Positions 10,784 to 24,637 of a DNA stretch of 44,556 nt are shown piece by piece. A program made the position numbers and the translations under genes. Source of the DNA: Ectothiorhodospiraceae bacterium (GTDB taxonomy: Bacteria; Pseudomonadota; Gammaproteobacteria; Nitrococcales; Aquisalimonadaceae). The notes under the pieces are model-generated. The model was not told the origin of the DNA and ran no database searches. It saw only the letters and a program-made list of their open reading frames with translations. The stretch is taken from contig JAFIFU010000027.1 of NCBI GenBank assembly GCA_020831885.1, positions 1 through 44,556 on the forward strand. Reading direction: 5' to 3'. Position 1 is the stretch's first letter. Each line of letters begins with the position of its first letter.

Positions 10784-11049
10784 ATCGCGTCCCTGGAGGC
10801 GCACGCACACCAGCGCCCGGCCCGGGGCGGCTGACGCGGCGCTGGATGTTCCGTACCGGGCCCGCGCCGGCCCAATGGATCCGCTACACTGCCGCAAGGG
10901 GCGCCGCCCATGCAATACCGGTAGGGTCCCGCCGTCGCGGCCTGGCGGCACATCAATGCATAACGTACCATCGATCGCGTGGGCGCTATACCAAAATCTG
11001 GTCCCGGCGCTGCGTCCGGACCGCGCCGTGGACAGTCAGGGTGGATACG
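10784..11049. promoter_or_regulatory. divergent intergenic region between the ABC exporter and NRPS 1
   Basis: These 266 bases separate two divergent genes and must hold both promoters. I find no convincing -35/-10 pair or sigma-54 site. The NRPS 1 ribosome binding site (AGGGTGG, 5-6 bases before the ATG) is at its right end. Confidence 0.35.
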
Positions 11050-14000
11050 ATGACGCAACAGGGATACCCGCTGACCAGCATTCAGGAAGGTATGGTGTTT
11101 CATCACGCCGCCGGTGGGCACCGGGGCGTGGACATCGAACAGATCCTCATCGATTTCCCCATCTCCCCGGACACCGCGCTGTTCCTGCAGGCGTGGGAGC
11201 GGGTGCTCGCCGCCCACCCGTCGCTGGCATCACGCCTGCACGAGGAAGGCGGCGCCACACGGCTGGCCCCCGAGCCCGGGTTTCGTCTTCCGGTCACGGA
11301 GGCGGTTCAGGCGGACAACCCGGCGGATTGGGAACACTGGCTGGAGCAGGACCGGGAACGGGGTTTCGATCTTTTCAAGGATGTGCCCATGCGTCTGGCC
11401 CACGGCCCGCTGGACGGCGGCCGCCGGTTCGTCTGGACGTTCCATCATCTGCTGTTGGACGGCCGCAGCTTTCCCGACGTGCTGGTGGACGTGCTGGACG
11501 CCTACCAGGCACTTGTGGAAGGGCGATCAGCGGACGTCCCGGGCCGCCCGGACCGCACTCCCTATCTGAACTGGTTGCAGGCGCTGGACCACAGCCGCTC
11601 CATGAACTTCTGGGGCGATCACCTGAACGGGCTGGAATCCTCCGGCTCACTGGTGGATGCGCCGGACCCGGCGGCTTCATGGGCCTTGCAGACGCTGCAC
11701 CTGCCGGAGGAGGAAACCCGGGCACTCCGGGCGGGGGCCGAAGCCCTGGAGGCCGGCATGGGCACGCTGGTGCAGGCGGCCTGGGCCGTGCTGCTGGGCC
11801 GGTATACGGATCAGCAGGATGTCTGTTTCGGTGTCACCCGGGCCGGCCGCCAGGGCAGCCCGGTGCCGGATACGGACCGGATGCTGGGTGTCTTCATCAA
11901 CACCGTGCCGGCACGGGTGCGGCTGGAGCATCTCACCGGCCGGCAATTGCTGGCCACGCTGCAGCAGTTCGGCCGGGACGTGCGCCCCCATGAACGCACA
12001 CCCCTCACCCTGATCCAGCGGGCAGCGGAGGGGCTGCCCTCGCCGCTGTTCGACTCGTTGGTGATGTTCGATCACGCCTCGCTGCAGGCCGCCATCCACC
12101 AGTTGCGGCCGCAGCTCAAGGATCTGCGCTTCACCCTGCGGGAGCGGCCGCCCTACCCGGTCACGCTCTATGCCTACGCGGATCCGGAGCTCCAGCTCCG
12201 GATCAATCACCGGCGCGATGCGGCCACCAATGACCAGGCGTGGCGCATGCTGGCCCATGTGCGGCAGTTGCTCACGCAACTGGTGCAACGGCCGGACACC
12301 CCACTCAGTGAACTGACCATGCTCACGCCGGAGGATTACAGCGCCTTACGGCGGTTCAATCAGACGGCGGCGGAGGTACCGTTCCAGGATATCCACACCG
12401 GCTTCCGCCGGGCGGTGGACCGGCACCCGGATCGAACTGCGCTGCTGGCCGGCGGCCGCTCCCTGAGTTACCAGGGGCTGGATGCCCTGGTGTCCCGCAT
12501 GGCCGCGGGCCTCCGGCAGGCAGGTGTGGAACCCGGGAGCGTGGTGGGCATCGGCCTGCCCCGGTCCTTCGAACTGGTGGCCGCCGTGCTGGCCACCCTG
12601 CGCGTGGGGGCCGCCTATCTGCCGCTGGATCCGGACTACCCGGTGGACCGCCTGCAGCACTACGTGCGGGATTCCGGTGCGGGCTTCATTGTCAGCGCCC
12701 CCGCGCAGCGTTCGCTTTTCGCCGACGCCGGGGCCCGGCTACTGGACGCCGGGGCGCTGGCCTCGGGCAGTGCCGATGCCCAGGCGCCCCACGGTCCGGG
12801 CCCGGAGGACCTTGCCTACATCATCTACACCTCCGGCTCCACCGGCGTGCCCAACGGCGTGATGCTCCGCCAGCGCAACGTGGTCAACTTTTTCGCCGGC
12901 ATGGACCGGGTGATCACCCCGGATCCCCCCGGGCGCTGGCTGGCGGTGACCAGCCTTTCCTTCGATATCTCGGTGCTGGAGCTGCTGTGGACCCTGACCC
13001 GGGGCTATGAAGTGGCGATTCACGGCGCGCAGTCGCTGGAACACGCCGGGAAACGGGCCGGTTTCAGCATGTTCCACTTCGCCCAGGGGGCGGACGAAAC
13101 CGACGAGAACCCGTACCGGCTGATCCTGGAAGCGGCCCGCTTCGCCGATGAGGCGGGATTCGAGGCGGTGTGGTCTCCGGAGCGGCATTTCCATGATTTC
13201 GGCGCCCCCTATCCCAACCCCTCGGTGATCGGCGCGGCCATCGCCGCCACCACGCAACGCATCGGCATCCGCGCCGGCAGCGTGGTACTGCCCCTGCACG
13301 ACCCGCTGCGGGTGGCGGAGGAATGGGCGCTGGTGGATCAGCTCTCGGATGGCCGCATCGGCCTGGCCATGGCCTCCGGCTGGCAACCCAATGATTTCGC
13401 CCTGGCCCCCGACAGCTACGAAAACCGCAAGGAGGTCATGTACGCCGCCATCGAGCAGTTGCGGGCCCTGTGGCGGGGGGAGGCCGTGGAACGGGTGAAC
13501 GGCGTGGGCGATGCTGTTGCCCTGAAGACCTATCCCCGTCCCCGGCAGAAGGAACTGCCCATCTGGATCACCGCCGCCGGCAATCCGAACACCTTTGCCC
13601 AGGCCGGCGCCATCGGCGCCAATGTGCTTACTCATATGCTGGGTCAGTCGGTGGAGCAGGTGCGGGCCAACCTGGCGGCCTCCCGGGAAGCTCGGCATGC
13701 CAACGGCTTCGACGACGGCCACGTGACCCTGATGCTGCATACCTTCATCGGCGAGGATGAGGCCCGGGTGAAGGAACTGGTGCGGGAACCCATGAAACGC
13801 TACCTGGCCAGTTCCGCCAGCCTGGTGGGGCAGTATGCGGACACCTGGAGCGCGTACCGCCGGGGCAGCGCCGCCCAGGTGAGCGCCGGCGACATCGCCG
13901 AGCTGGATGAGGATACCCGGGACGAGCTGTTCGAGTTCGCCTTCGAGCGGTTTTTCGAAACCAGCAGCCTGCTGGGATCCCGGGACAAATGCGCCCGGCT

Positions 14001-15306
14001 GGTGGAGGCCCTGCTGGATGCGGGCGTGAACGAGATCGCCTGCCTGATCGATTTCGGTGTGCCCACGGATCAGGTGATCGCCCACCTGCCGTACATCGCC
14101 GAACTGGAGAAACAGATCAACGGAGACACCGGCCCCGGCGAGGAGCCCGCGGACCTGGCGGAGGATATCCGACGCTTTGCGCCCACCCATCTGCAGTGCA
14201 CGCCGTCCCAGGCGCGGATGCTGCTCCTGGGCACGGACGAGAACGCGGATTTCACCTCCCTGCGCCATGTCATGCTGGGCGGCGAGGCCGTGCCCCCGGA
14301 TCTGTGTCAGGAACTCTACGGGAGGCTTTCCCGGGCGGCACGCATCACCAATATGTACGGCCCCACGGAGACCACCATCTGGTCCACCACGGCGGATGTG
14401 CCCCGGGATGCCGGGACCGTTGCCATCGGCCATCCCATCGTGAACACGGGCTGCCATGTGCTGGATTCCGAAGGCCACCCGGTGCCCGAAGGGCGCACCG
14501 GCGAGCTGTTCATTTCCGGGGACGGCCTGGCCCTGGGCTACCATGACCGCCCCGAGCTGAACGCGCGGCGCTTCGTGCTGCGCCGGCCGGACCCGGAGTC
14601 GGATCCCGTGCGCATGTACGCCACCGGCGATCTGGTGCGGTTGACGGACCAGGGGCTGGTTTACGTGGGCCGGCGGGATTTCCAGCTCAAGGTCCGGGGT
14701 TACCGCATCGAGCTGGGGGAGATCGAGTCCGCGCTGCGCCAGCGGCAGGATGTACAGGACGCGGTGGTGATGGCGCGGCCCGATGCCGCCGGTTCACTGC
14801 AGTTGGCCGCCTACCTGGTACCGAAGCCCGGCATCCGGCTGGACCGGACCGAACTGCAGACCGCCCTGCGCCAGCAGCTGCCGGATTACATGGTACCCGG
14901 CATCTACGTGCAGCTACCGCGCCTGCCGCTGACCCCCAACGGCAAGATCGACCGCAAGGCCTTGCCGGATCCGGGGCAGGGTTCGTTGGAGGCGCCAGCC
15001 GCGGAGGCGGCACCCACCCCCGCCCCGGCTTCCCCGGCGGAACCCGCCGGCGGGAAGGTCGAGCCCGCCGGCAAACACGAGGATATGCTGCAGGAACTGT
15101 GGCAGCGGCTGCTGGGGCAGCCCGAGATCGGGCGGGAGGATAATTTCTTCGACCTGGGCGGGCACTCGATTCTGGCGGTGAAGCTGCAGGGGGAGCTGCG
15201 CAAGGCGCTGGGCTTCCGGGTGCCGGTGACCGAGATCTTCCGTAACCCCACGATAGCCGGGCTGGCCGGACGACTGCAGGCCCTGGAGGCCGCCAAGGGC
15301 CGATGA
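11050..15306 (+). CDS. NRPS 1: C-A-T module with a luciferase-like monooxygenase inserted in the A domain
   Basis: A single 1418-residue module. The condensation domain (about 5-440) has an intact HHLLLDG at 132-138. The adenylation domain starts near 460 with A3 YTSGSTG at 593 and A4 FDISVLELL at 638. It is then interrupted from about 672 to 1025 by an FMN-dependent luciferase-like monooxygenase (FSMFHFAQ, SPERHFHDFGAPYPNPS, ASGWQPNDFA) of the MupA/Atu3671 type. Adenylation resumes with A5 NMYGPTETT at 1101 and ends with A10 NGKIDRKAL at 1297. A carrier domain closes the protein (LGGHS, phosphopantetheine Ser1373). No thioesterase is present. My reading of the specificity code, D-I-L-Q-L-G-M-I-W, is close to the glycine code. 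By analogy with MtaG of myxothiazol biosynthesis it may hydroxylate carrier-bound glycine. Start at the ATG at 11050 with AGGGTGG upstream; its TGA overlaps the next ATG. Confidence 0.9.
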   Translation: MTQQGYPLTSIQEGMVFHHAAGGHRGVDIEQILIDFPISPDTALFLQAWERVLAAHPSLASRLHEEGGATRLAPEPGFRLPVTEAVQADNPADWEHWLEQDRERGFDLFKDVPMRLAHGPLDGGRRFVWTFHHLLLDGRSFPDVLVDVLDAYQALVEGRSADVPGRPDRTPYLNWLQALDHSRSMNFWGDHLNGLESSGSLVDAPDPAASWALQTLHLPEEETRALRAGAEALEAGMGTLVQAAWAVLLGRYTDQQDVCFGVTRAGRQGSPVPDTDRMLGVFINTVPARVRLEHLTGRQLLATLQQFGRDVRPHERTPLTLIQRAAEGLPSPLFDSLVMFDHASLQAAIHQLRPQLKDLRFTLRERPPYPVTLYAYADPELQLRINHRRDAATNDQAWRMLAHVRQLLTQLVQRPDTPLSELTMLTPEDYSALRRFNQTAAEVPFQDIHTGFRRAVDRHPDRTALLAGGRSLSYQGLDALVSRMAAGLRQAGVEPGSVVGIGLPRSFELVAAVLATLRVGAAYLPLDPDYPVDRLQHYVRDSGAGFIVSAPAQRSLFADAGARLLDAGALASGSADAQAPHGPGPEDLAYIIYTSGSTGVPNGVMLRQRNVVNFFAGMDRVITPDPPGRWLAVTSLSFDISVLELLWTLTRGYEVAIHGAQSLEHAGKRAGFSMFHFAQGADETDENPYRLILEAARFADEAGFEAVWSPERHFHDFGAPYPNPSVIGAAIAATTQRIGIRAGSVVLPLHDPLRVAEEWALVDQLSDGRIGLAMASGWQPNDFALAPDSYENRKEVMYAAIEQLRALWRGEAVERVNGVGDAVALKTYPRPRQKELPIWITAAGNPNTFAQAGAIGANVLTHMLGQSVEQVRANLAASREARHANGFDDGHVTLMLHTFIGEDEARVKELVREPMKRYLASSASLVGQYADTWSAYRRGSAAQVSAGDIAELDEDTRDELFEFAFERFFETSSLLGSRDKCARLVEALLDAGVNEIACLIDFGVPTDQVIAHLPYIAELEKQINGDTGPGEEPADLAEDIRRFAPTHLQCTPSQARMLLLGTDENADFTSLRHVMLGGEAVPPDLCQELYGRLSRAARITNMYGPTETTIWSTTADVPRDAGTVAIGHPIVNTGCHVLDSEGHPVPEGRTGELFISGDGLALGYHDRPELNARRFVLRRPDPESDPVRMYATGDLVRLTDQGLVYVGRRDFQLKVRGYRIELGEIESALRQRQDVQDAVVMARPDAAGSLQLAAYLVPKPGIRLDRTELQTALRQQLPDYMVPGIYVQLPRLPLTPNGKIDRKALPDPGQGSLEAPAAEAAPTPAPASPAEPAGGKVEPAGKHEDMLQELWQRLLGQPEIGREDNFFDLGGHSILAVKLQGELRKALGFRVPVTEIFRNPTIAGLAGRLQALEAAKGR

Positions 15307-16040
15307 TTCCCCGCTTGCTGGATCCGGTGTTCATCGGCCTGGTGGCGCTGCTGGTTGGCCTGGCGGCGGTGACGCTGTCCACCCCGGGGCGGCGGTGGCG
15401 TGCGCCCTTGCTGCTGGCCTGGCTGGGCTTCGCCTGGCTCTGGCTGGCGGCATCCCCCTGGTTTTCCAACCCCCTGATCCGGATGATGCAGCCGCCGCCC
15501 ACGGATGTGGCCGCGGCGGTGGCGGCAACGCCGCCGGAACGGCGCGCCATGGTGATTCTGGCCCAGACCTACAAGGCGGAACAGCCCTTCGTGCCTCCCA
15601 TGGAGCGGCTGGACGGCACCACCCGCGCCCGGCTGCTGGGCGGCGCGCGGATTTTCCGGGAGGCGGAGGGCTTCGGCCTGGTCATCGTGACCGGGCCCGG
15701 CGAGACCTTCGTTGAAGCCATGGCGGATTACCTGGAGCTGCTGGGGCTTCCCCGGGAGCGGATCGCGCTGGAACCGGATGCGGTGAACACCCGGACCAAT
15801 GCCATCGAGTCCGCGGCGATCATCCGCCAGCATGGGATGGATCAGGTGGTTCTGGTCACCAGTGCGTTGCATATTCCCCGGGCGGTGGCGGCATTCAGTG
15901 CGGCGGATTTGGCGGTGGTGCCGGCACCGGTGGATTACCTGGACGACCGGAGCTGGCGGTTGTTGCCGTCATCCCGGCAGCTTTACCGGAGTTTCAAGTT
16001 GAGCCACGAAGTGTTCGGGCGGGTAGCCGCAAGATTGTAG
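15303..16040 (+). CDS. YdcF/ElyC-like membrane protein (DUF218)
   Basis: The 245-residue protein has two hydrophobic N-terminal segments (about 8-25 and 33-50), then a periplasmic-type DUF218 domain with MVILAQTYK, VTGPGETFVEAMADYLELLG, NTRTNAIESAAII and VTSALHIPRAVAAF, matching the ElyC/SanA/YdcF family. Family members are implicated in envelope and peptidoglycan/lipid-carrier homeostasis; the biochemical role is unsettled. The ATG overlaps the NRPS 1 stop (ATGA), so the two are co-translated. Comparable DUF218 proteins occur in exopolysaccharide clusters. Structured repeats begin two bases after its stop codon. Confidence 0.8.
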   Translation: MIPRLLDPVFIGLVALLVGLAAVTLSTPGRRWRAPLLLAWLGFAWLWLAASPWFSNPLIRMMQPPPTDVAAAVAATPPERRAMVILAQTYKAEQPFVPPMERLDGTTRARLLGGARIFREAEGFGLVIVTGPGETFVEAMADYLELLGLPRERIALEPDAVNTRTNAIESAAIIRQHGMDQVVLVTSALHIPRAVAAFSAADLAVVPAPVDYLDDRSWRLLPSSRQLYRSFKLSHEVFGRVAARL

Positions 16041-16042
16041 TC

Positions 16043-16139
16043 GTAGGTCGGAAGCCCCGCGGAGCAGGGATCTCCGACGATGCGGCGATGGGGTTGGTTG
16101 ACGTCGGTGATCCGCGCTGTGCGCGGCTACCGACCTACG
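16043..16139 (+). repeat. 97-bp structured repeat, copy 1
   Basis: The unit starts GTAGGTCGG and ends CCGACCTACG-1, so its 9-base ends are complementary. Inside are three further pairings: CCCCGC/GCAGGG around a GGA loop, CCGACG/CGTCGG around a 22-base loop, and CCGCGC/GCGCGG around TGT. Together they draw a cloverleaf-like fold. It begins two bases after the stop of the YdcF-like gene. Confidence 0.85.
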
Positions 16140-16158
16140 CGGGGCGGGGCTGTGTTCT

Positions 16159-16255
16159 GTAGGTCGGAAGCCCTGCGAAGCAGGGATCTCCGACGATGCG
16201 GCGGTGGGGTTGGTTGACGTCGGTGATCCGCGCTGTGCGCGGCTACCGACCTACG
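16159..16255 (+). repeat. 97-bp structured repeat, copy 2
   Basis: The unit has the same length and ends as copy 1 (GTAGGTCGG to CCGACCTAC plus G). Its first inner hairpin is CCCTGC/GCAGGG with a GAA loop and the last is CCGCGC/GCGCGG. It is separated from copy 1 by 19 variable bases. Confidence 0.88.
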
Positions 16256-16268
16256 GGGGCGGGCTTTC

Positions 16269-16365
16269 GTAGGTCGGAAGCCCTGCGAAGCAGGGATCTC
16301 CGACGATGCGGCGATGGGTTTGGTTGACGTCGGTGATCCGCGCTGCGCGCGGCTACCGACCTACG
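16269..16365 (+). repeat. 97-bp structured repeat, copy 3, overlapping the end of the hydrolase gene
   Basis: The unit again is 97 bases with complementary 9-base ends. Its last 13 bases (16353-16365) are also the final codons and stop of the minus-strand alpha/beta hydrolase. The third hairpin is CCGCGC/GCGCGG with a TGC loop. Confidence 0.88.
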
Positions 16366-17225
16366 CGGGAGGAGGGTTGTTGGTTGTTGACGCCGGGGAG
16401 CCATTGGAGGACGGTCTGGTAGAGCCATTGGCGGTCGGTGCGATCGCTCAGGATGTGGTTGGCCTGGGGGCGCCATTCCACCTGCAGCACCGGGGATCGG
16501 GGCGACAGCTTCAGGCTGTCCGCGACCTGCCCCGGGTAATTGCAATACCGGTGCGCGCCGCCGGTGAGCACGTACAACAAGCGGACGCCGTCCGCCTCCA
16601 ACTGCTTCGCCTTTTCCTGCATGGCCTCCGGCGGGTCGGTGAGCAGGCCGTAATGATCCGGCGGCAGCACGTCGTCTTCACTCCCCAGGCGGTCCTTCAG
16701 CCTTAACGCAATCGACCGGCCCGACACCACGTTCAACCACGAACGCGCACTGGTTAGCCGCTGCTTCATCTTCTCCCGTCGGAATCCGGGGGTCTCGTGC
16801 ACCATGGGGTCGATCAGCACCAGACCACGGACCCGCGGATCGGTCGGGGCCACGTGGAACGCATTGTCGGCGCCGGAACACAGGCCGATGAGCACGACGC
16901 CGCCGGGGCAACGCCCGTCCTCCAGAGCCAGGGTGATGGCATCATCGATATCCTGTTTCACGATCTCCGTGAGCGGCGCTTCCCGGCGGGGCAAGGCGCT
17001 GTCGCCGATCCCCGAGAGATCGAAACGGAAGCTGCGGTAGCCTGCCTCCGCCAGGGTCCGCGCCAGTTGCACGGTGAAACGGCTCGCTCCCACCCGGTGG
17101 ATGATGCCGGCATTGAGCAACACCACCGCCACGGGCATCTCCGGCCCCTGGCGCGGCTCCGAGAAAAGCCCCAGCAGATTGCCTTCGCGCCCGAAGACCC
17201 GGCCCTGTTCCCTTATGTCACCCAC
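16353..17225 (-). CDS. alpha/beta hydrolase, exosortase A system-associated type 1-like
   Basis: A 290-residue cytoplasmic alpha/beta hydrolase. The oxyanion/strand region VAVVLLNAG is followed by FRFDLSGIGDS. The nucleophile elbow is GLCSG, which puts a cysteine, not a serine, at the central position. Late in the chain QANHILS supplies the probable catalytic histidine and DP(M)VHE lies near the acid position. This pattern fits the hydrolase 1 family found with exosortase A loci (TIGR03100-like). Next to two thioesterase-less NRPSs it could release or edit carrier-bound product. The start is a GTG at 17225, 13 bases inside the preceding gene, with GGGG about 10 bases upstream. The C-terminus (VGR, stop) is encoded by repeat DNA. 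Confidence 0.75.
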   Translation of the reverse strand: MGDIREQGRVFGREGNLLGLFSEPRQGPEMPVAVVLLNAGIIHRVGASRFTVQLARTLAEAGYRSFRFDLSGIGDSALPRREAPLTEIVKQDIDDAITLALEDGRCPGGVVLIGLCSGADNAFHVAPTDPRVRGLVLIDPMVHETPGFRREKMKQRLTSARSWLNVVSGRSIALRLKDRLGSEDDVLPPDHYGLLTDPPEAMQEKAKQLEADGVRLLYVLTGGAHRYCNYPGQVADSLKLSPRSPVLQVEWRPQANHILSDRTDRQWLYQTVLQWLPGVNNQQPSSRVGR

Positions 17226-17944
17226 GCTGCAATCCCCTTGGACAATTCATAGGGCACGGCACCGGCACCGAAATCCCGCTCCTCTTCCCAGCAACGGGGC
17301 GCCTCCACGGCAACCGTTTCCACCTGCCGCGCCTGAAGCCCCAGCGCCTCCGGTTCCGGCACCGCCCCGGAACCGGCCAGCAGTACCCGGGCCCGCGTTC
17401 CGGGCAGACCCGCCAGGTGGGCATCGGCCAGTTCCCCCAGGAAGGCGGCGGACAGCTCGAACCCCTGGCGTTGCAGGGGCTCCCCGGAAGCCTCTTCATC
17501 GGCGATCCCCAATTCGGCCAGGTAATCCGGGCCGGAGGGCACGGAATCCCACAGCACCAACTGGTTCACCTGCCGCGGCCGGCGGCCCGCCAGCCGCGCG
17601 GCCACGAGGCCGCCGAAGCGCAGGCCGATGACACTGGCCTTGTTCACGGACGCCAACCGCAAAACCTCGTCCAGCGCCCACTCCGCATCCTCGACGCAAC
17701 CGCTCAACGTGACCTCCGTGGCCTCGCCGAAGGAGTCGCCGGTACCGTAATAGTCGAAGCGGAACACGTCCATGCCGGCCCGGGCCAGCAGATCCCCCAG
17801 GTGCTTGAGCGAGCGATGGGCCCGCAGGGCTTCGAAACCCCAGGGATTGAGCAGCAGGACCGCCCGACGCTTCCTGGGCTCGGCCGCCGGCGTGTAGACG
17901 CCGAACAGCAGCCGCTCCCGGGTTCCGAAATGCACGGGCATCAT
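17213..17944 (-). CDS. alpha/beta hydrolase-fold protein, exosortase A system-associated type 2-like
   Basis: The 243-residue protein has the fold markers AVLLLNPWGFEALRAHRSLK and VFRFDYYGTGDSFGE. The nucleophile elbow, however, reads GLRFG: arginine stands where Ser or Cys should be, so ordinary hydrolase chemistry is unlikely. The exosortase-associated hydrolase 2 family (TIGR03101-like) as I recall it has a similar GLRLG, so this may be a family trait rather than decay. The start overlaps the NRPS 2 stop by four bases (ATGA at 17941-17944) and its own end overlaps the hydrolase 1 start, so the three are one translation unit. A binding or chaperone role for its neighbour is possible. Confidence 0.7.
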   Translation of the reverse strand: MMPVHFGTRERLLFGVYTPAAEPRKRRAVLLLNPWGFEALRAHRSLKHLGDLLARAGMDVFRFDYYGTGDSFGEATEVTLSGCVEDAEWALDEVLRLASVNKASVIGLRFGGLVAARLAGRRPRQVNQLVLWDSVPSGPDYLAELGIADEEASGEPLQRQGFELSAAFLGELADAHLAGLPGTRARVLLAGSGAVPEPEALGLQARQVETVAVEAPRCWEEERDFGAGAVPYELSKGIAAWVT

Positions 17945-20900
17945 GCCTGTTCACCCTCCGGCAGGCGGCAGCCGTTGGCCTCCGCCTGGGCGGCCAGTTG
18001 CGCCACCGACAGATAGTAGAATTCCCGGGGCTGGAGCCCGGCGCCGGGCAGGCGTTTGTCCAGCGCCGCCAGCACGCGCATGGCCATCAGGGAATGCCCC
18101 CCCAGTTCGAAAAAGTTGTCGTGCCGACCCACCCGGCCCACGTCCAGATACCCCTGCCAGACATCCGCCAGGACGCGCTCCGCCGGGGACTCCGGCGCCT
18201 CATACTCCGGTTGTCCGGCCGCGCTGGCCAGGGGATCCGGCAGGGCCTTGCGATCCACCTTGCCGTTGGGGGTCAGCGGCATGGATTCCATGGGCACCAG
18301 CAGCCCGGGCACCATGTAGTGGGGCAGGGTCTCCATCAGGTGCCGGCGCATCTCGCCGGCCAGCAATTCCTGCCCGGGCTCGAACACCACGTAGGCCACC
18401 AGGCGTTTGTCCTCCGCCTCTCCCCGGGCCACCACCACCGCCTGGCGGATCTCCGGCAGCGCCTCCAGACCGGCCTCGATCTCCCCGGCCTCGATCCGGT
18501 AACCGTGCACCTTGAGCTGGAAATCCACCCGTCCCAGGTGCTCCAGCCGGCCGTCCGGCGTCCACCGGCCCAGATCGCCGGTCCCGTACATGCGTTCGCC
18601 CTCCACGAACGGATCCGGCCGGAAACGCTCCTCCGTCAGGTCGGGGCGGCCATGGTAGCCGCGGGCCACACCGCTGCCGGCGATCCAGATTTCCCCATGA
18701 ACGCCATCCGGCACCAGTTGCCCGGCCTCGTCCAGCACGTACACCCGGGTGTTCGCCAGCGGCCGCCCCACCCGCACCGGGCCCACGCTGGCAAGCCGTT
18801 CCGCGGTGGACCAGATCGTGGTCTCGGTGGGGCCGTAGAGGTTCCAGACCGCCTCACCCCGCTCCAGCAGGCCGGGAACCAGCCCTTCCGGCAGTGCCTC
18901 CCCACCGCACAGCAGCAGCCGCAACCCACCGCCCCAGCCGGCATCCAGCAGCATGCGCCAACTGGCCGGCGTTGCCTGCATGACCGTGGCGCCGCTCGCG
19001 TCCAGCAGCTCCGCCAGGGCGCCGCCGTCGCTGGCGGTATCGGTATCGGCGATCAGCACCCCGGCGCCGACGCACAGGGGCAGAAACAGCTCCAGGCCGG
19101 CGATATCGAAGGACAGCGTGGTCACCGCCAGCAGCCGGTCCTCCGGATCCAGCCCCAGGTCATCCCGCATGGAGCCGAGAAAGTTGCGCAGCGCCCCGTG
19201 GGGGATCTCCACGCCCTTGGGCCGCCCGGTGGAGCCGGACGTGTAGATCACATAGGCCAGATCATCCGCTCCGGGCATGTGTTCCGGAACCGCATCCGCC
19301 GCCGCTTCCAGCAAGGCCTCCGGCGGAACCAGCGCCGCCTCGCCGAATGCCGCACCGGGGTCGTCGGTGATCACCAGACGTGCGCCGCTATCCTCCACCA
19401 TGTAGCGCAGCCGCTCCGGGGGGAAGTCCGGGTCCAGCGGCACGTAGGCGGCGCCGGCGCGGAGAATCCCCAGTACCACCGCCAGCATGGGTGCGCCCCG
19501 TTCCAGGTTCACCCCCACCAGCCCGCCGGAGCCCAGCCCCCGCCCGGCGAGCCCCGCCGCCACACGTTCGGCAAGCGCCCACAACTGCGCGTAAGTCCAG
19601 CACTCGCCGGCTTCATCCTCCACCGCCAGCGCGTCACTCCGCCGGGCGGCCTGCTCCCGGACCCATTCCAGAAAGCTGCCGGTAGCCAGCTCCGGGACAA
19701 CCCGCCCGGCGCGTTCCCGCACCAGGGCCTGCTGCTCCGCCTCGTTCAGCAACGGCAGGGAGAGCACCGGGGCATCCGGGTCCTGCACCACGGCCCGGGC
19801 CAGACGTTCGAAGCGCTGCGCCATTCCCTCCACGAAATCCCGGTGGAACAGATCGATGTCGTACTCGAAGTCGCAGATCAGGGCATCTTCGCGCTCCACC
19901 GCGTACAGCGCGATATCGCTGATCGCGCCGCGACGCTCCAGCCGCACCTCCTCCACCACCAGATCATGGAAGGCCGGTGGCGCATCCAGACGCTCGTAGG
20001 TGAGCATGGCCTGCACCAGCGGCGCCCGGCTGGAATCCCGCCGGATATCCAGGGCCCCCACCACACGGTCGAACGGGATGGCGGCAAACTCCAGGCTTTC
20101 CAGCACGGCGCTCAGTGCCTGTTCCACCAGGGTGGCAAAGGTGCTGGTCCGGTCCAGCCGGGCGCGCATGGCCATGACGTTGAGGAGGAAGCCGACCATC
20201 CCTTCGGTGGCGGAATCGGAGCGCCCCGCCTCGGCCACCCCCACCACCAGGTCCTGCTGCCGGCTGTACCGGGCCAACAGCAACTGGAACAGGGCCAGCA
20301 CCATCATGAACGGGGTGGCCCCCAGCTCCCGCCCCAGGCTGGTCAACTGCCGGCGCAGGGCCGGTTCCAGCACCACCGTGACCACGTCGCCCCGGTGCCG
20401 TTGCTCGCTGCCGCGCGGGTAAGACGTGGGCAGCTCCAGCGGCGGTGCGTGGGACAATGTCTCCTGCCAGTACTGGAGGCCGTCGGACAGCAGTTCCCCG
20501 TCCTCTTCCAGCATCCGCCGCTGTTGTTCCGCCAGGGCGAAGAAATCCTCCCCCCGGGGCGGCAGCCCGGCTTGGGTGCCGGCCACCTGTTCCCCGTAGA
20601 GCGCCGCCAGTTCCCGCTGCACCTGAATCCAGGACTGGCTGTCCGCGGCCATTTCATGCACGGCCAGCACCAGCAGGTGATCCGTGTCCCCAAGCCGGTA
20701 AAGCAGCGGGCGGAACAGCGGCCCCTGCTCCAGATCGTAGGGCGCCGCCACGGCGTCGGAGGCCCGTGCCACGGCGGCGTCCAGCGGCGTGGCTTCACCG
20801 GAGAGATCCTCCACCGGCAGGGATACAGGCCCGGGGGGCGGAACATCCACCACGGGCAGACCGTCCGCGGCCGGGTAGCGGGCCCGTAGAACCGCATGCC

Positions 20901-21090
20901 GGGCGATCAGTCGGGCCAGAGCCCGCTCCAGCGCCTCCACCGCCAGGGGACCCTGCAAGCGCAACGCGGCGGCGCGATTGTAGGCCGCGCCCACGTGCTC
21001 CAGCTTATCCAGCACCCAGAGCCGCTCCTGGGCATGGGACGGGCGAACCGGTTGTTGCCCGGCCGGGTGGGAAACGTCGACACTGTCCAT
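17941..21090 (-). CDS. NRPS 2: C-A-T module with a degenerate condensation motif
   Basis: About 1049 residues. The condensation domain starts near residue 15 (RPSHAQERLW). Its catalytic HHxxxDG is HEMAADS at 145-151, the second, catalytic His being Glu and the Gly being Ser. The adenylation domain runs from about 460: A3 YTSGSTGRPKG at 616, A4 FDIAGLEL at 661, A5 NLYGPTETT at 750, then GYRIEAGEIE and NGKVDRKAL. The carrier domain has LGGHSL with Ser1000. No thioesterase follows. My code reading, D-I-L-Q-C-G-L-I-W, is again glycine-like. I choose the ATG at 21090, preceded by GGAGG at about 10 bases. ATGs at 21114 and 21132 are alternatives; the latter would share the bases CATG with the divergent PPTase start. 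The enzyme heads an operon with the two hydrolases. Confidence 0.88.
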   Translation of the reverse strand: MDSVDVSHPAGQQPVRPSHAQERLWVLDKLEHVGAAYNRAAALRLQGPLAVEALERALARLIARHAVLRARYPAADGLPVVDVPPPGPVSLPVEDLSGEATPLDAAVARASDAVAAPYDLEQGPLFRPLLYRLGDTDHLLVLAVHEMAADSQSWIQVQRELAALYGEQVAGTQAGLPPRGEDFFALAEQQRRMLEEDGELLSDGLQYWQETLSHAPPLELPTSYPRGSEQRHRGDVVTVVLEPALRRQLTSLGRELGATPFMMVLALFQLLLARYSRQQDLVVGVAEAGRSDSATEGMVGFLLNVMAMRARLDRTSTFATLVEQALSAVLESLEFAAIPFDRVVGALDIRRDSSRAPLVQAMLTYERLDAPPAFHDLVVEEVRLERRGAISDIALYAVEREDALICDFEYDIDLFHRDFVEGMAQRFERLARAVVQDPDAPVLSLPLLNEAEQQALVRERAGRVVPELATGSFLEWVREQAARRSDALAVEDEAGECWTYAQLWALAERVAAGLAGRGLGSGGLVGVNLERGAPMLAVVLGILRAGAAYVPLDPDFPPERLRYMVEDSGARLVITDDPGAAFGEAALVPPEALLEAAADAVPEHMPGADDLAYVIYTSGSTGRPKGVEIPHGALRNFLGSMRDDLGLDPEDRLLAVTTLSFDIAGLELFLPLCVGAGVLIADTDTASDGGALAELLDASGATVMQATPASWRMLLDAGWGGGLRLLLCGGEALPEGLVPGLLERGEAVWNLYGPTETTIWSTAERLASVGPVRVGRPLANTRVYVLDEAGQLVPDGVHGEIWIAGSGVARGYHGRPDLTEERFRPDPFVEGERMYGTGDLGRWTPDGRLEHLGRVDFQLKVHGYRIEAGEIEAGLEALPEIRQAVVVARGEAEDKRLVAYVVFEPGQELLAGEMRRHLMETLPHYMVPGLLVPMESMPLTPNGKVDRKALPDPLASAAGQPEYEAPESPAERVLADVWQGYLDVGRVGRHDNFFELGGHSLMAMRVLAALDKRLPGAGLQPREFYYLSVAQLAAQAEANGCRLPEGEQA

Positions 21091-21130
21091 CCCGGACCCA
21101 CCTCCGTCGGTCATTATTGGTTGGAGAACC

Positions 21131-21847
21131 ATGCTAGCACTCCGCGCCGATGCCGTTCATCTGGTTCAGCAGCGGCTGGACGCCCCCTGGGCGGCGCCGC
21201 TGCCCGCGGAGGCGTACCTGACGGGAGCCGAGCGCCGGCGCGTGGACCGGCTGCGCTTCCCCCATCTACGCCGGCGGGCGGCCCGTTCCCGGGCCCTGCT
21301 GCGGCTGCTGCTGGGGGCGGTCCGCGGCGAGTCGCCACACGCCGTGCCCATTGCCCTTGGCGAACAGGGGAAACCCAGGTGCCCGGGCGGGCCCGCCTTC
21401 AATCTCAGTCACGCGGACGAGGACTGGCTGCTGGCCCTGACCCCGGACGGGCGGCTGGGGGTGGACCTGGAACGGGTGCGGCCGCTGGATGATCTGGACG
21501 CCGTGGCGGGAATGAACTTCTCCCAACGGGAGCTGGAGGCACTGACCCGGGTACCGGAGGCATCCAGGCTGCGGGCCTTCTACCGCTGCTGGACGCGGAA
21601 GGAGGCCCTGGTCAAGGCCATGGGCGGCGGCCTGAGCCTGCCCCTGCAGCAGTTCTCCGTGGCCGTGACCGGGGGGGAGCGCAATTGCCTCACGGAGCTG
21701 TCGCTCCCGGGGGAATCCCTGACCGCCTGGCGGGTCCTGCCGGCACTGGACACCGACGACCGGGTGGCGGCCGTGGCCCTGGACGACAGCCGGCCGCGGC
21801 AGCTCATTCATCACTCCGCGGAGGACTTCCTGTCCAGGCGCCGGTGA
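21131..21847 (+). CDS. Sfp-type 4'-phosphopantetheinyl transferase
   Basis: The enzyme transfers phosphopantetheine from CoA to the serine of carrier domains, turning apo-NRPS into its active form. In the 238-residue protein the magnesium motif GVDLE is at 110-114 and the second motif WTRKEALVKAMG at 154-165; the length and FNLSHADED region fit the Sfp/Gsp class. GGAG lies 5 bases before the ATG. It is divergent from NRPS 2 and about 6 kb from NRPS 1, so it very likely primes Ser1000 of NRPS 2, Ser1373 of NRPS 1 and perhaps the free-standing ACP. Its last 37 bases overlap the end of the convergent acetyltransferase gene. Confidence 0.9.
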   Translation: MLALRADAVHLVQQRLDAPWAAPLPAEAYLTGAERRRVDRLRFPHLRRRAARSRALLRLLLGAVRGESPHAVPIALGEQGKPRCPGGPAFNLSHADEDWLLALTPDGRLGVDLERVRPLDDLDAVAGMNFSQRELEALTRVPEASRLRAFYRCWTRKEALVKAMGGGLSLPLQQFSVAVTGGERNCLTELSLPGESLTAWRVLPALDTDDRVAAVALDDSRPRQLIHHSAEDFLSRRR

Positions 21848-22929
21848 ACCCGCAATAGCTGATGCTCCAGCCGGTTCTTCAGGGTCTTGCGCCGCAGGGC
21901 CACCCAGCACAGCTCGTTGGCGTCCTTGGCCAGCCGCCGCTTGTATTGGGCATCGCCGGCCAGGAAATCGTAACTGGTCATACCGAGGTCCAGGTTCCAC
22001 TCCACTGCCAGACTGTTGCACACCAGCCCCACCTGGTAATCCTCGAACTCCGCATAGTTGAAGCCGCTCTGGAGCATGGCCACATGACCGCGATGCACCA
22101 GGGTGTAGATATAACCCAGCGGCTTCTCCCCCGCGGAGAAGCGCAGGAGCTGAACGCGGCCGTCACCCAGCCCCGCGGTGATCACGTCCCGGTGAAACGC
22201 CTCCCAGCGCGGATTGGCGAATGAACCGGAACGCCCGCGGCTTTGCCAGTAGCGCTGGTGAAACTCCTTCAGCCCGTCGAAGTGGGCATGGGCCTCCTCC
22301 ACGGTGCGGGCCTGGTCCGTCCGCACCTCCCCCAGCTCGGCAAGCCGGCGCAGTTGCCGGCGGATCTGGTAGCGGGAGTTTTTGCCCAGGCTCTGCAACA
22401 GCGTGCGCCGCTGGGCACGCAGTCCCGTGAGATCCACATACCAGCAGGGTGAACGGTTGAGCTCGTCCACCAGGACCATCCCGCGACGGGTCGCTGCGGC
22501 CAGCAGGGGATCCTCCGCCCGCACGGCGCTCAACACCAGTTCCGACCAGGCGGCTTCCGCCAGAAACCAGTCCAGCATGGACTCGGCCACCGCCTGTTCA
22601 TAACCGCGCCGGATCACAAGTCCGTTGTATTCGATGACGAAATTGCTCCGTCCCCAGCCGGATTCATGCAGAAACAGCGTCCGGTTCGGGAAGCGGTGGA
22701 GGGCATAGCGGTCGCGGCCGCAGATCACGGCCAGCCCCACGTCCCGATCACCGTCCGTCCAGCGCAGCACCCGGGGGCGCGCCTGATCGCCGATATGGTC
22801 GAGCCAGGCACCGATCCAGAGCCAGGACTGGAAAAAGGAGATATCCGCCTCATGCTCCAGTGCAGTCCAGCGGTTGGCCAGGGCCGCCCGGTCCGACACC
22901 GGCTCCACGTGCACGGTGAGCTCTCCCAT
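21811..22929 (-). CDS. BcsL/CelD-like GNAT acetyltransferase
   Basis: The 372-residue protein matches the Acetyltransf_6 (CelD/BcsL) type found in polysaccharide clusters. An N-terminal half has FFQSWLWIGAWLDHIGD. A long basic helix region follows (LGKNSRYQIRRQLRRLAELG), and a C-terminal GNAT half has EKPLGYIYTLVHRGHVAMLQ, then YQVGLVCNSLAVEW. It probably acylates a sugar amine or an intermediate in the cytoplasm; the substrate is unknown. Its ATG overlaps the stop of the aldo/keto reductase by one base (TGATG), so the two are co-translated. The 3' end overlaps the PPTase gene. Confidence 0.7.
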   Translation of the reverse strand: MGELTVHVEPVSDRAALANRWTALEHEADISFFQSWLWIGAWLDHIGDQARPRVLRWTDGDRDVGLAVICGRDRYALHRFPNRTLFLHESGWGRSNFVIEYNGLVIRRGYEQAVAESMLDWFLAEAAWSELVLSAVRAEDPLLAAATRRGMVLVDELNRSPCWYVDLTGLRAQRRTLLQSLGKNSRYQIRRQLRRLAELGEVRTDQARTVEEAHAHFDGLKEFHQRYWQSRGRSGSFANPRWEAFHRDVITAGLGDGRVQLLRFSAGEKPLGYIYTLVHRGHVAMLQSGFNYAEFEDYQVGLVCNSLAVEWNLDLGMTSYDFLAGDAQYKRRLAKDANELCWVALRRKTLKNRLEHQLLRVHRRLDRKSSAE

Positions 22930-23888
22930 CAGGCACCCCTCCCGGCGAGCCGGCCCAGCCGGCGCCCCAGGCCGGCGAGCACCTGGGCCAGCGGGCCCTG
23001 GACACCCGGCAGTGCCCGGAAGCTCCGCTCCACGGCGCGCAGCAGGGCGCGGTCCGGCACCGCATCCAGGGCCCGGATGGCGCTGTCCACCCGGGCCTCG
23101 GACCGCGCCCCGGGAATGGGGACAAGGTTGTCCGACAAGCCCATCAACCAGGCCAGCACCAGTTCCTCCGCACTATAGCCCGCCTCCGCCGCCAGTTCCG
23201 CCAACGGTGCGCACGCGCGGACCGCCGCAACGCGATCAGGGCCGCCCAGGGGCGAATGCGCCAGGAACAGAATGCCCTGGCGGCGGCAGTACCCGATCAC
23301 CGGAGAGGGGCGGATGGACACGCCCCAGGGATTCATCTGGTTCTGCACCGAGGCGATGGGCACGATACGCCGGGCCTCGCGGATCTGCGGCACCGTCACA
23401 TTGCACAGCCCCACGGCGGCGATCTTGCCCTCCTCCCGCAGCCGGGCCAGGGCGCCCACGCTCTCGGACCAGGGAACCCGGGGGTCCGGCACGTGCAACT
23501 GGTAGAGGGGGATGCAATCCGTCTCCAGCGCGCGCAGACTGGCCTCGCAGGCACGGCGCAGGTGCTCCGGCCGGCCGTCCCGCCCCCAGCGCTCGCCCCG
23601 CCGGGTCATGCCGCCCTTGGTGGCAATGATCACATCCCCACGAACGCTCCCCGGCAGCGCCTGGGCCACCAGCCGTTCTCCATAGCCCAGTTCCCCGTCA
23701 TCCAGGCAGTAGACGTCGGCGGTATCGATCAGCCGCAGGCCCCGCTCCACCGCATGGCGGATCACCGCCAGGCTCCGCTCCCGTGGGGGACGGCCGCGCA
23801 GCCCCAGCGGCATGCACCCCAGACCCGGGCGGGCGGGAACGCGGCCGGCGATGGAGGCATGACTGGTAGTCAGGTGAACTGTCGCCAT
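22929..23888 (-). CDS. aldo/keto reductase
   Basis: A 319-residue NAD(P)H-dependent oxidoreductase of the AKR TIM-barrel fold. The catalytic tetrad is visible: Asp55 and Tyr60 in LIDTADVYC, Lys91 in IIATKGG and His132 in YQLHVPDP. The cofactor-binding end has PIPGARSEARVDS. The substrate is unknown; in this setting it could reduce a sugar or the carbonyl of a carrier-derived intermediate, but AKRs of this type are often general. It is the first gene of a two-gene operon with the CelD-like acetyltransferase and is divergent from the GNAT gene across 104 bases. Confidence 0.82.
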   Translation of the reverse strand: MATVHLTTSHASIAGRVPARPGLGCMPLGLRGRPPRERSLAVIRHAVERGLRLIDTADVYCLDDGELGYGERLVAQALPGSVRGDVIIATKGGMTRRGERWGRDGRPEHLRRACEASLRALETDCIPLYQLHVPDPRVPWSESVGALARLREEGKIAAVGLCNVTVPQIREARRIVPIASVQNQMNPWGVSIRPSPVIGYCRRQGILFLAHSPLGGPDRVAAVRACAPLAELAAEAGYSAEELVLAWLMGLSDNLVPIPGARSEARVDSAIRALDAVPDRALLRAVERSFRALPGVQGPLAQVLAGLGRRLGRLAGRGA

Positions 23889-23992
23889 AGAATGACATAA
23901 TGCTCCTGCTCAATCCCCGGGGCCCGGGGGTCCGGGGCCATCGCCGCCCCGATCGATGGGCAACGGCCCGCCATACACGCGACAGGTACGGC

Positions 23993-24637
23993 ATGCTCGG
24001 CAACTGGTTAAAAACCGTCAAGGGTCAGTCGCCATTCATCGTGGCCCAGGACCTGCTGAACAAACTGCCCAGCCGGTTTTTCCGGATGGGCCGGTTCCAC
24101 GTGCTGGACATCCAGGACCTGGGCAGCCTCCGGGTGCGGGGCGTGGGCAGCATCCGGGACGGCACCGCCGGGGACATCCCCGCCCTGTGCCAGCTCCAAC
24201 GCCGGAAGCGCGCCTTCACCCAGCGCTTCGCCGCCGGGGACCGGTGCCTGGTTGCGGAGCACCAGGGGGAGATCGTCGGCTACCTCTGGTACACCGAAGG
24301 GGATCGCCACGAGGACAGCCGGTTCAACTACGCCTTTTCCGTCCCCAGCCATTCCATCTTCGGTTACGACTGCTACATCGCCCCGCGCTACCGCCTGCGG
24401 GGCACCTGGCTTTTGCTGCAACAGCGCCTGTTGGAGAAGGCCTACGCCCTGGGCCGCAGTCATGTGACCTGCCATATCGACTACGGCAATACCGCCTCGC
24501 TGAAGGCGCATCTCCGACTGGGGTATACGCTCATCGGCGACGTGATCGTGGTGCGGGTGGGATCCCGGTGCTTCTCCCATGTCAGGCGCGGGCCACCGGT
24601 ACCGGCATCAGCGGCGGCAGGGACAGGTAGCGCGTAG
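23993..24637 (+). CDS. GNAT-family N-acetyltransferase
   Basis: The 214-residue protein has a GNAT core: DIPALCQLQRRK, then CLVAEHQGEIVGYLWYTEG (central strands) and YIAPRYRLRGTWLLLQQRLL (acetyl-CoA pyrophosphate loop region, although the RxxGxG/A motif is weak). NTASLKAHLRLGYTLIGDV is the usual C-terminal helix. Such PEP-CTERM/exosortase-associated acyltransferases are frequent in XrtA loci. The ATG at 23993 with AGG 8 bases upstream is preferred over an ATG at 23900. The last 56 bases overlap the convergent NAD-synthase-like gene. Confidence 0.65.
   Translation: MLGNWLKTVKGQSPFIVAQDLLNKLPSRFFRMGRFHVLDIQDLGSLRVRGVGSIRDGTAGDIPALCQLQRRKRAFTQRFAAGDRCLVAEHQGEIVGYLWYTEGDRHEDSRFNYAFSVPSHSIFGYDCYIAPRYRLRGTWLLLQQRLLEKAYALGRSHVTCHIDYGNTASLKAHLRLGYTLIGDVIVVRVGSRCFSHVRRGPPVPASAAAGTGSA

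What the first reader, a model, noticed from the sequence alone, without database searches (positions are those of the whole stretch)
11050..24637. Two-NRPS pathway embedded in an exosortase A locus
Two C-A-T NRPS proteins, a Sfp-type PPTase, two alpha/beta hydrolases, two acetyltransferases and an ABC exporter lie inside or directly beside the XrtA export and ligase genes. The NRPS/hydrolase unit is translationally coupled and the PPTase starts beside NRPS 2. Exosortase A loci are known for a ligase/ACP/hydrolase/decarboxylase set; an NRPS pair with its own PPTase is not something I know to be described. It could make an aminoacyl or peptide substituent for the polysaccharide, or a small signal or metabolite co-regulated with it.
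Basis: partly seen in the sequence, partly recalled or inferred. Interest (0 to 1): 0.85.

Follow-up and report, generated by a model that had tools for sequence, protein, structure and literature searches.

The report
Glycine-loading NRPS with paired hydrolases
Inside a gene cluster that makes and exports a sugar polymer, this bacterium carries an enzyme line that probably loads glycine and passes it to a conserved pair of hydrolase-like proteins found at the end of similar lines in many bacterial phyla, which may mean that the pair attaches small acyl or peptide groups to something such as the polymer.

Summary
The window holds two NRPS genes, a PPTase and two alpha/beta hydrolases inside an exosortase/exopolysaccharide locus with a PEP-CTERM protein. 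NRPS1 is not plain C-A-T: a luciferase-like monooxygenase sits inside its A domain. NRPS2 (glycine-type A code, degenerate condensation motif) overlaps hyd2 by 4 nt, and hyd2 overlaps hyd1 by 13 nt. hyd1 keeps a Cys and a His; hyd2 has Arg where the nucleophile should be. The unit 'carrier - hyd2 - hyd1' is no chance insertion: of the 79 best relatives in named genomes, 73 have the pair and 62 have NRPS/PKS upstream. The pair is homologous to exosortase A hydrolases 1 and 2 but falls in another branch. The nearest relative, a Gemmatimonas contig, has the same parts beside an exosortase. Linkage to exosortases recurs (four Marinobacter genomes, relative G005) but is the minority state: in a class sample only the window's own genome, of 11 with the unit, has both on one contig. 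Best reading: hyd2-hyd1 is a two-protein off-loading acyltransferase; here it may put a glycyl group on the polysaccharide or a precursor. Neither the catalysis nor the acceptor is shown.

The parts
11050..15306 (+). NRPS1: C - A with luciferase-like monooxygenase inserted in the A domain - T (open frame from 10846)
   Evidence: Pfam and TIGR04020 (475 bits, cut-off 244); nearest solved monooxygenase 6ket PuwE, E 3e-102; A code D-I-L before the insert, QMGMIWK after it
15303..16040 (+). DUF218/ElyC-like protein, 4-nt overlap with NRPS1
   Evidence: PF02698
16353..17225 (-). hyd1: alpha/beta hydrolase with Cys at the nucleophile elbow (GLCSG, Cys116) and His257
   Evidence: TIGR03100 90.8 bits, under the cut-off 168; Cys116 and His257 invariant in 66 aligned rows; model pLDDT 89.9, alpha/beta-hydrolase fold
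17213..17944 (-). hyd2: alpha/beta hydrolase fold with Arg109 in place of the nucleophile (GLRFG)
   Evidence: TIGR03101 79.4 bits, under the cut-off 203; Arg invariant in 58 aligned rows; model pLDDT 92.2
17941..21132 (-). NRPS2: C (motif HEMAADS) - A (code DILQLGLIWK, glycine type) - T
   Evidence: Pfam, translation, code; best solved match linear gramicidin synthase subunit A, chain residues 787-1794
21131..21847 (+). Sfp/HetI-type phosphopantetheinyl transferase
   Evidence: PF01648 64.7 bits; NF042922 99 bits, under its cut-off
21811..22929 (-). GNAT (Acetyltransf_6)
   Evidence: PF13480
22929..23888 (-). aldo/keto reductase
   Evidence: PF00248
23900..24637 (+). GNAT acetyltransferase
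   Evidence: PF00583
24582..25562 (-). NAD-synthase-like (PRK00876)
   Evidence: NF002048 493 bits, cut-off 313
25581..26477 (-). PrmC/HemK-like methyltransferase
   Evidence: TIGR03534 213 bits, cut-off 199
26474..28054 (-). acyl-CoA-ligase-like (ligase_PEP_1 type)
   Evidence: TIGR03098 446 bits, under the cut-off 592
28066..28317 (-). free-standing acyl carrier protein
   Evidence: PF00550; NF052616 64 bits, under its cut-off
28337..30316 (-). asparagine-synthase-like amidotransferase
   Evidence: TIGR01536 496 bits, cut-off 267; TIGR03108 409 bits, under its cut-off
30323..31681 (-). O-ligase-like (PEP_O_lig type)
   Evidence: TIGR03097 124 bits, under the cut-off 188
34698..35786 (+). polysaccharide deacetylase
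   Evidence: PF01522; PgaB model 66.7 bits, under its cut-off
35797..36846 (-). FemAB-family, exosortase A associated
   Evidence: TIGR03019 388 bits, cut-off 260
36843..38390 (-). exosortase with EpsI-type C-terminal domain
   Evidence: PF09721 144.7 bits; TIGR03109 181 bits, cut-off 208
38394..43179 (-). polysaccharide export core: TIGR03016 outer membrane protein, tyrosine kinase, chain length determinant, export protein
43537..44184 (+). PEP-CTERM protein, possible exosortase substrate
   Evidence: PF07589 34.8 bits, TIGR02595 30.1 bits, cut-off 16
8969..10951 (-). MsbA/PglK-type ABC exporter
   Evidence: NF050066 330 bits, TIGR02203 292 bits, both under cut-off

Best explanation
NRPS2-hyd2-hyd1 is a loading and off-loading unit. 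The A domain of NRPS2 activates a small amino acid, most likely glycine, and puts it on its carrier domain after the PPTase has armed the carrier. hyd2, which lacks a nucleophile, docks the carrier or forms the scaffold. hyd1 takes the thioester on its cysteine and hands the acyl or aminoacyl group to an acceptor. Because the unit lies in an exosortase/exopolysaccharide locus, the acceptor here is most likely the polysaccharide, its lipid-linked precursor or a sugar amine. NRPS1 (glycine-type A domain with monooxygenase) makes or oxidises a second residue. Shown here: the genes, overlaps, conserved Cys/His and Arg, the recurring order carrier-hyd2-hyd1, glycine-type codes, recurrence beside exosortases. 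Inferred: the catalysis, the heteromer, the substrate and the acceptor. Separate estimates: off-loading by the pair 0.75; glycine on NRPS2 0.8; acceptor is the exopolysaccharide or a precursor 0.4.
For: Pair adjacent in 73 of 79 loci, NRPS/PKS within 6 kb upstream on the same strand in 62 of 79 (52 within 1 kb). A carrier domain lies within 600 nt upstream of hyd2 in 55 of 79 loci; in the class sample in 9 of 11 loci of the high-scoring group (the window one of them) and 8 of 19 of the low-scoring group; 24 nt away in the window. hyd2 is in one frame with a carrier domain in 5 of 79 loci (L096, L137, L149, L164, L166) and in G005. hyd1 has Cys at the elbow in 88 of 91 and His in 88 of 91 domains; hyd2 has Arg in 82 of 84 and Gly in 2; in the class sample 30 of 30 and 28 of 28 resolved. 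The nearest A domain upstream of hyd2 has a code of the form DILQxGxxWK in 38 of 49 loci with such a domain within 4 kb (one of the 38 is a split domain read in part), against 9 of 79 A domains in control NRPS regions, which were not limited to last modules. Polysaccharide-locus markers in 28 of 79 pair loci against 1 of 40 control regions (Fisher p 2.6e-5); 23 of 79 with the less specific markers dropped (p 4.6e-4), 23 of 73 without Marinobacter (p 1.9e-4); none of these corrects for kinship. Exosortase on the same contig as the pair: G420 adjacent, four Marinobacter at 11-20 kb, G434 about 34 kb, G446 about 45 kb; G005 about 26 kb.
Against: 51 of 79 pair loci show no such marker within the DNA held, at most 10 kb each side. 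22 of 50 searched genomes with a hyd1 relative gave no exosortase. In the class sample no genome but the window's has both on one contig (10 others). Both control regions that carry the pair show no marker, though one ends right after hyd1. No acceptor is identified. Many pair loci belong to long PKS/NRPS lines that could make free metabolites. A carrier domain was not found before hyd2 in 24 of 79 loci and 11 of 19 low-group loci. The glycine code and the argument from Cys to acyl transfer are recalled. No hyd1-hyd2 complex was modelled.
Confidence: 0.45

Rival explanations
1. The NRPS genes make a free small molecule, for example an acylglycine or glycine-amide lipopeptide or signal, which hyd1-hyd2 releases; it lies with the exosortase genes only because both serve biofilm life.
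For: Many pair loci end PKS/NRPS lines, often with an aminotransferase and several C-A-T modules, and 51 of 79 show no polysaccharide marker. N-acyl amino acid synthase genes are reported to lie frequently next to PEP-CTERM/exosortase genes (PMC7293339, passage read), so small acyl amino acids in such loci have a precedent. The monooxygenase-in-A layout is recalled to give terminal amides in myxothiazol-type lines.
Against: Polysaccharide markers are 28 of 79 against 1 of 40 in control NRPS regions. The pair is homologous to exosortase A hydrolases 1 and 2. The ABC exporter's best models are lipid or polysaccharide exporters, all under cut-off.
Confidence: 0.33
2. hyd1-hyd2 is a proof-reading (type II thioesterase) pair that clears carriers and does not make the product.
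For: Type II thioesterases are trans-acting alpha/beta hydrolases beside NRPS genes (general knowledge).
Against: NRPS2 has no release domain of its own. The order carrier-hyd2-hyd1 recurs, with hyd2 fused behind a carrier domain in G005 and 5 of 79 loci. In G005 and L089 a separate Thioesterase-family protein (PF00975) is encoded within about 6 kb of the pair. hyd1 has Cys, not Ser.
Confidence: 0.15
3. The NRPS block is a chance neighbour of the exosortase genes with no functional tie.
For: Same-genus G001 and G002 have the exosortase core without a condensation domain on that contig, but those contigs are only 6-7 kb. In the class sample no other genome has both on one contig.
Against: Exosortase and pair share a contig in Gemmatimonas, four Marinobacter and G005; in G434 O-ligase-like, phosphatase, glycosyltransferase, ATP-grasp, deacetylase and FemAB homologues of the window lie between exosortase and pair. 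Base composition is the same.
Confidence: 0.12

Closest known systems
Exosortase A associated hydrolases 1 and 2 (TIGR03100, TIGR03101)
   Same: Same two-gene order; Cys in hyd1 and Arg in hyd2; in 8 of 19 low-group loci a carrier protein directly upstream
   Different: Window proteins score 90.8 and 79.4 bits, under cut-offs 168 and 203, while 7 tree rows of the other clade score 215-352 against TIGR03100. The window lies among the other 81 rows of the tree; its carrier is an NRPS T domain
Gemmatimonas sp. S07.Bin148 locus (JAABRO010000021.1; L227, L089, L228)
   Same: Monooxygenase-A NRPS, A(glycine type)-T-hyd2-hyd1, PPTase and exosortase within about 20 kb; its hyd1 is sister of the window's with 100/100 support
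   Different: Its A-T unit has no C domain; it also has PKS modules and a second pair; no homologues of the window's export core were seen in the 42 of 48 kb read
NRPS modules with monooxygenase inside the A domain (MtaG/MelG type, recalled; PuwE, PDB 6ket)
   Same: NRPS1 layout; monooxygenase matches PuwE at E 3e-102 and TIGR04020
   Different: Lies in a polysaccharide locus, with no thioesterase domain in the gene
N-acyl amino acid synthases linked to PEP-CTERM/exosortase genes
   Same: Acyl amino acid chemistry next to exosortase genes (PMC7293339, passage)
   Different: Single acyltransferase-type enzymes (recalled), not NRPS lines
Linear gramicidin synthase LgrA module 2
   Same: Best solved match of NRPS2 (820.8 bits); recalled to activate glycine
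   Different: C motif degenerate in NRPS2; followed by hyd2-hyd1

Membership tests
Exosortase A (XrtA) locus | Exosortase over the XrtA model's cut-off (TIGR03109, 208 bits) | tested here: not met
   181-183 bits
Exosortase A (XrtA) locus | XrtA-associated chain length (TIGR03007), outer membrane (TIGR03016), FemAB (TIGR03019) and export (TIGR03027) proteins over cut-off | tested here: met
   494.7/278.85, 226.1/90.85, 388/260.35, 227.4/180
Exosortase A (XrtA) locus | XrtA-associated kinase (TIGR03018) over cut-off | tested here: not met
   209.8 of 230.65 bits
Exosortase A (XrtA) locus | PEP-CTERM substrates in the genome | tested here: met
   5 matches over cut-off, one in the window
Exosortase A ligase/ACP/hydrolase/decarboxylase set | TIGR03098, TIGR03100, TIGR03101 over cut-off | tested here: not met
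   446/592, 90.8/168, 79.4/203
Exosortase A ligase/ACP/hydrolase/decarboxylase set | PLP decarboxylase | tested here: inconclusive
   no match among the genes scanned; not every frame of the window was scanned
NRPS | C, A and T domains with phosphopantetheine Ser and A-domain core motifs | tested here: met
   LGGHS and TSGSTG in both; NRPS1 has PNG in place of PKG
NRPS | Catalytic HHxxxDG in the C domain | tested here: inconclusive
   NRPS1 HHLLLDG intact; NRPS2 HEMAADS
Interrupted A domain with luciferase-like monooxygenase | TIGR04020 inside an AMP-binding domain | tested here: met
   residues 740-1087 of NRPS1, between two AMP-binding pieces
NRPS/PKS-linked hyd2-hyd1 pair (this report) | Carrier domain directly before hyd2; Arg in hyd2; Cys and His in hyd1; place among the 81 rows of the tree | tested here: met
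Trans-acting thioesterase or acyltransferase | Transfer or release activity on a carrier-bound substrate | not testable with these tools
   needs enzymology

The most novel reading that the evidence does not exclude
Carrier-hyd2-hyd1 is a general two-protein acyl/aminoacyl transferase: one subunit with a cysteine nucleophile and one dead, arginine-bearing subunit. It moves groups from a carrier (free ACP in exosortase A loci, the last T domain of an NRPS/PKS line elsewhere) on to exopolysaccharides or their precursors. The ligase/ACP/hydrolase set of exosortase A loci would be its minimal form and the window a hybrid of both forms, giving bacteria of many phyla a route to peptide- or acyl-decorated polysaccharides.
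Probability: 0.3. Interest if true: 0.88.

Novelty: new variant of a known kind. Interest (0 to 1): 0.72.

Why it matters
The ligase and the two hydrolases of exosortase A loci are listed by NCBI only as hypothetical equivalogs. The window and its relatives suggest one job for the two hydrolases, off-loading a carrier protein, and predict which residues matter (Cys116 and His257 in hyd1; Arg109 in hyd2). That makes the function testable in cultured strains such as Marinobacter lipolyticus or Corallococcus. It would also define a release step for a group of uncharacterised NRPS/PKS clusters found across many phyla.

Tried and rejected
Rejected: 'C-A-T pair' as a complete description (NRPS1 has an inserted monooxygenase). 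Rejected: recent transfer of the NRPS genes judged by composition; it is the left island (5804-8918, GC 0.48-0.50) that differs. Rejected: the hydrolases as the ordinary exosortase A hydrolases (tree; scores). Rejected: general linkage of condensation domains to exosortase loci; of 136 exosortase-positive genomes (112; 24 of 25 nearer relatives, the weak match in G051 left out) 30 have a condensation domain, and 3 (G000, G005, G022) have one within about 30 kb of the exosortase on the same contig. Corrected on checking: a first fusion test by coordinates alone named six loci; a test in one frame upholds L137, L149, L164 and L166, drops L154 and L162, and adds L096.

Led nowhere: the monooxygenase family searched in 95 relatives is over cut-off only in the window's genome. 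hyd2 as a single protein query gave mostly weak hydrolase matches. Paper searches on exosortase with NRPS, hydrolase, PKS or ACP listed no paper whose title or abstract start describes this unit; (NRPS with capsular polysaccharide, glycine, amide-linked) likewise among the 15 of 49 listed. The library holds open-licence PMC papers only. The Leptothrix/Sphaerotilus sheath idea (glycine and cysteine peptides on polysaccharide, recalled) was not confirmed: passages of PMC11412304, PMC8264430 and PMC11087309 give no such composition and no such genes; PMC8264430 says that the fibres contain thiol, carboxyl and amino groups. Of the other listed papers only PMC7293339, PMC12078418 and PMC8776678 were opened, as passages (the last two name exosortase only in reference lists). 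The fold search for hyd1 gave generic alpha/beta hydrolases in the 50 rows shown; none was made for hyd2.

Weak points: the 79 loci are the best-scoring part of 479 relatives found with one short pattern and a profile led by the window's own hyd1, which may favour NRPS-linked relatives; the class sample and the control set were made to check this. The alignments A3 and A4 hold 65 of 80 and 57 of 69 listed domains plus the window; rows left out include L152, whose hyd1 elbow reads His, and hyd2 of L132 and L162 (Gly) were below the listing threshold, so 'invariant' holds for those rows and one search gives the wider count (exceptions there: one Ser in a hydrolase of L167 apart from the pair, one His, one gap). 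The markers for polysaccharide loci were the window's own proteins. The control is 40 regions chosen from the condensation hits; hits left out include G145, G040, G205:C163, G020:C2/C3/C55 and G121:C14. The glycine-code rule and its positions are recalled from the PheA motif order; I set them on NRPS2 by eye and carried them over by alignment.
Full report
Observation. The window is the whole of contig C54 of a 4.13-Mb draft genome (contig length). From left to right: an ABC exporter; NRPS1 and a DUF218 protein on the + strand; then, convergent to them, hyd1, hyd2 and NRPS2 on the - strand; the PPTase back to back with NRPS2; a GNAT, an aldo/keto reductase, a second GNAT; then NAD-synthase-like, PrmC-like, acyl-CoA-ligase-like, ACP, asparagine-synthase-like, O-ligase-like, phosphatase, ATP-grasp, glycosyltransferase, deacetylase, FemAB, exosortase, outer membrane protein, kinase, chain length and export genes, and a PEP-CTERM protein. 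NRPS2 overlaps hyd2 by 4 nt and hyd2 overlaps hyd1 by 13 nt.

Corrections. NRPS1 carries a TIGR04020 monooxygenase between two parts of its A domain; the nearest solved relative of that domain is PuwE, 6ket. The C domain of NRPS2 has HEMAADS where HHxxxDG is expected, while NRPS1 keeps HHLLLDG. The exosortase stays under the XrtA cut-off (183 of 208 bits), though four XrtA partner families pass theirs and the genome has five PEP-CTERM matches over cut-off.

The hydrolase pair. Both are alpha/beta hydrolases by sequence; the models are confident, and for hyd1 the fold search agrees. In an alignment of 66 hyd1 proteins Cys116 and His257 never change; in 58 hyd2 proteins Arg109 never changes and stands at the nucleophile elbow. 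Counted over the domains found in the window, four other loci and the 79 loci, hyd1 has Cys in 88 of 91 and His in 88 of 91, and hyd2 has Arg in 82 of 84 and Gly in 2. In 30 loci of the class sample the resolved elbows are Cys in 30 of 30 hyd1 and Arg in 28 of 28 hyd2. So one partner looks built for thioester exchange and the other like a pseudo-enzyme; this step is inference from sequence.

What it travels with. A scan of named genomes gave 79 loci, the best of 479 relatives, from Gemmatimonadota, Pseudomonadota, Myxococcota, Planctomycetota, Acidobacteriota, Nitrospinota, Chloroflexota and others. The pair is adjacent in 73, and NRPS or PKS homology lies within 6 kb upstream on the same strand in 62 of 79. 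In two further loci, L101 and L151, the NRPS/PKS line with hyd2 runs on the other strand. hyd2 is in one frame with a carrier domain in five loci (L096, L137, L149, L164, L166) and in G005. A carrier domain lies within 600 nt upstream of hyd2 in 55 of 79 loci. The nearest A domain upstream of hyd2 has a code of the form DILQxGxxWK in 38 of 49 loci; from memory this is the glycine code, and the nearest solved module of NRPS2 is in LgrA, recalled as its glycine module. A monooxygenase-A domain like that of NRPS1 scores over 200 bits in 6 of the 79 loci and again in the Gemmatimonas contig just outside L089.

Controls. Forty condensation-domain regions from exosortase-positive genomes carry the pair in 2, and in both it again stands directly after the NRPS. 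Polysaccharide-locus markers occur in 1 of the 40 but in 28 of the 79 pair loci (Fisher p 2.6e-5). Dropping asparagine synthase, ATP-grasp and phosphatase as less specific leaves 23 of 79 (p 4.6e-4); dropping Marinobacter leaves 23 of 73 (p 1.9e-4). These tests do not correct for kinship. Glycine-type codes make 9 of 79 A domains in the control.

Class sample. In 369 genomes of the class, the hyd1 profile at E 1e-20 finds 49 genomes in two score groups: 11 genomes with a match of 218 bits or more (13 matches) and 38 with 167 bits or less. Of the 11 loci read from the first group, 9 have a carrier domain before hyd2; of the 19 loci read from the second, 8 do, several of them matching the window's free-standing ACP. 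In 14 of the 38 genomes of the second group the match lies 1-55 kb from an XrtA-model match on the same contig (G159, G173, G176, G180, G186, G264, G279, G287, G298, G352, G373, G378, G386, G401). In the first group 5 of 11 genomes have an XrtA-model match, and only the window's genome has it on the same contig.

Tree. Among 91 hyd1 proteins a branch with 99/97 support parts 10 rows from the other 81. Eight of the 10 form a clade (100/99); seven of these were scanned and all pass the TIGR03100 cut-off at 215-352 bits, while the other two of the 10, L054 and L069, do not. The window's hyd1 lies among the 81, as sister of hyd1 of a Gemmatimonas contig with 100/100 support. That contig holds, within about 20 kb, C-A(monooxygenase), KS-AT, a first hyd2-hyd1, a PPTase, a glycosyltransferase, A-T-hyd2-hyd1 and an exosortase; an asparagine-synthase-like gene lies to one side and a further PKS-aminotransferase-C line to the other. 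It is close to the window's NRPS inventory in another phylum, next to an exosortase.

Linkage to exosortases. Fifty of the 79 genomes, those with the longest contigs, were searched: 28 have an exosortase match. In G434, O-ligase-like, phosphatase, glycosyltransferase, ATP-grasp, deacetylase and FemAB homologues of the window lie in between. In the window's own family, G005 has hyd2 fused to a C-A-T NRPS, then hyd1, about 26 kb from its exosortase. G022 has an NRPS with A and C domains beside an exosortase-type hyd1, about 26 kb from its exosortase. G053 has hyd1-hyd2 with NRPS and PKS on a 14-kb contig, its exosortase on another. The unit is therefore a module of its own that appears to have been joined to exosortase loci more than once.

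Mechanism. Shown: parts, order, overlaps, fusions, conserved residues. Inferred: the PPTase arms the carriers; NRPS2 loads glycine. Its C domain may be idle; in the Gemmatimonas sister it is missing, whereas 34 of 53 terminal units keep HHxxxDG by pattern. hyd2 docks, hyd1 takes the group on Cys116 and transfers it. A Cys in place of Ser favours transfer over hydrolysis; that is a general chemical argument, recalled. The acceptor in this locus is probably the exopolysaccharide or a precursor; the nearby deacetylase, with homologues in 13 of 79 pair loci, might supply free amines, but its cell compartment was not tested. The metabolite rival stays strong because 51 of 79 pair loci show no polysaccharide marker.

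Known or new. The pair is a relative of TIGR03100/TIGR03101, listed by NCBI as hypothetical equivalogs. The searches named under Tried and rejected listed no paper that describes the NRPS-linked pair; the library holds open-licence PMC papers only.

Noticed in passing
16037-16343 and 44304-44556: A dispersed repeat (core GTAGGTCGGAAGCCC...GGATCTCCGAC, spacing 110-116 nt) in three copies between DUF218 and hyd1 and two at the right end of the contig.
   Followed up: no
5804-8918: Low-GC island (GC 0.48-0.50 against 0.62-0.73 for the other genes measured) with a glycosyltransferase, an unassigned gene and an epimerase.
   Followed up: no
24582-30316: NAD-synthase-like, ligase-like, ACP and asparagine-synthase-like genes: parts of this set recur in L154 (NAD synthase, ligase, ACP), L118 (AsnB, NAD synthase) and L100 (ligase, ACP, AsnB); in G067 (L080) ligase and AsnB homologues (60% and 65%) lie near the exosortase. 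It may be a separate amidation cassette.
   Followed up: partly
36843-38390; XrtA-model matches in the class range from about 130 to 371 bits, and several genomes hold one strong and one weak match. The window's exosortase is among the weaker and may be a distinct type.
   Followed up: no
32111-33544 and 34698-35786: ATP-grasp and deacetylase genes lie on the + strand inside the otherwise - strand exosortase block.
   Followed up: no
L074:10775-12673: In G022 a hyd2 is followed in the same frame by what reads, by eye, as a family 2 glycosyltransferase domain, a further hint at a sugar acceptor.
   Followed up: no
G000:C82:6813-8126: The genome has another NRPS (frame of 3870 codons); same-genus G002 has one of similar size (3872 codons).
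   Followed up: no
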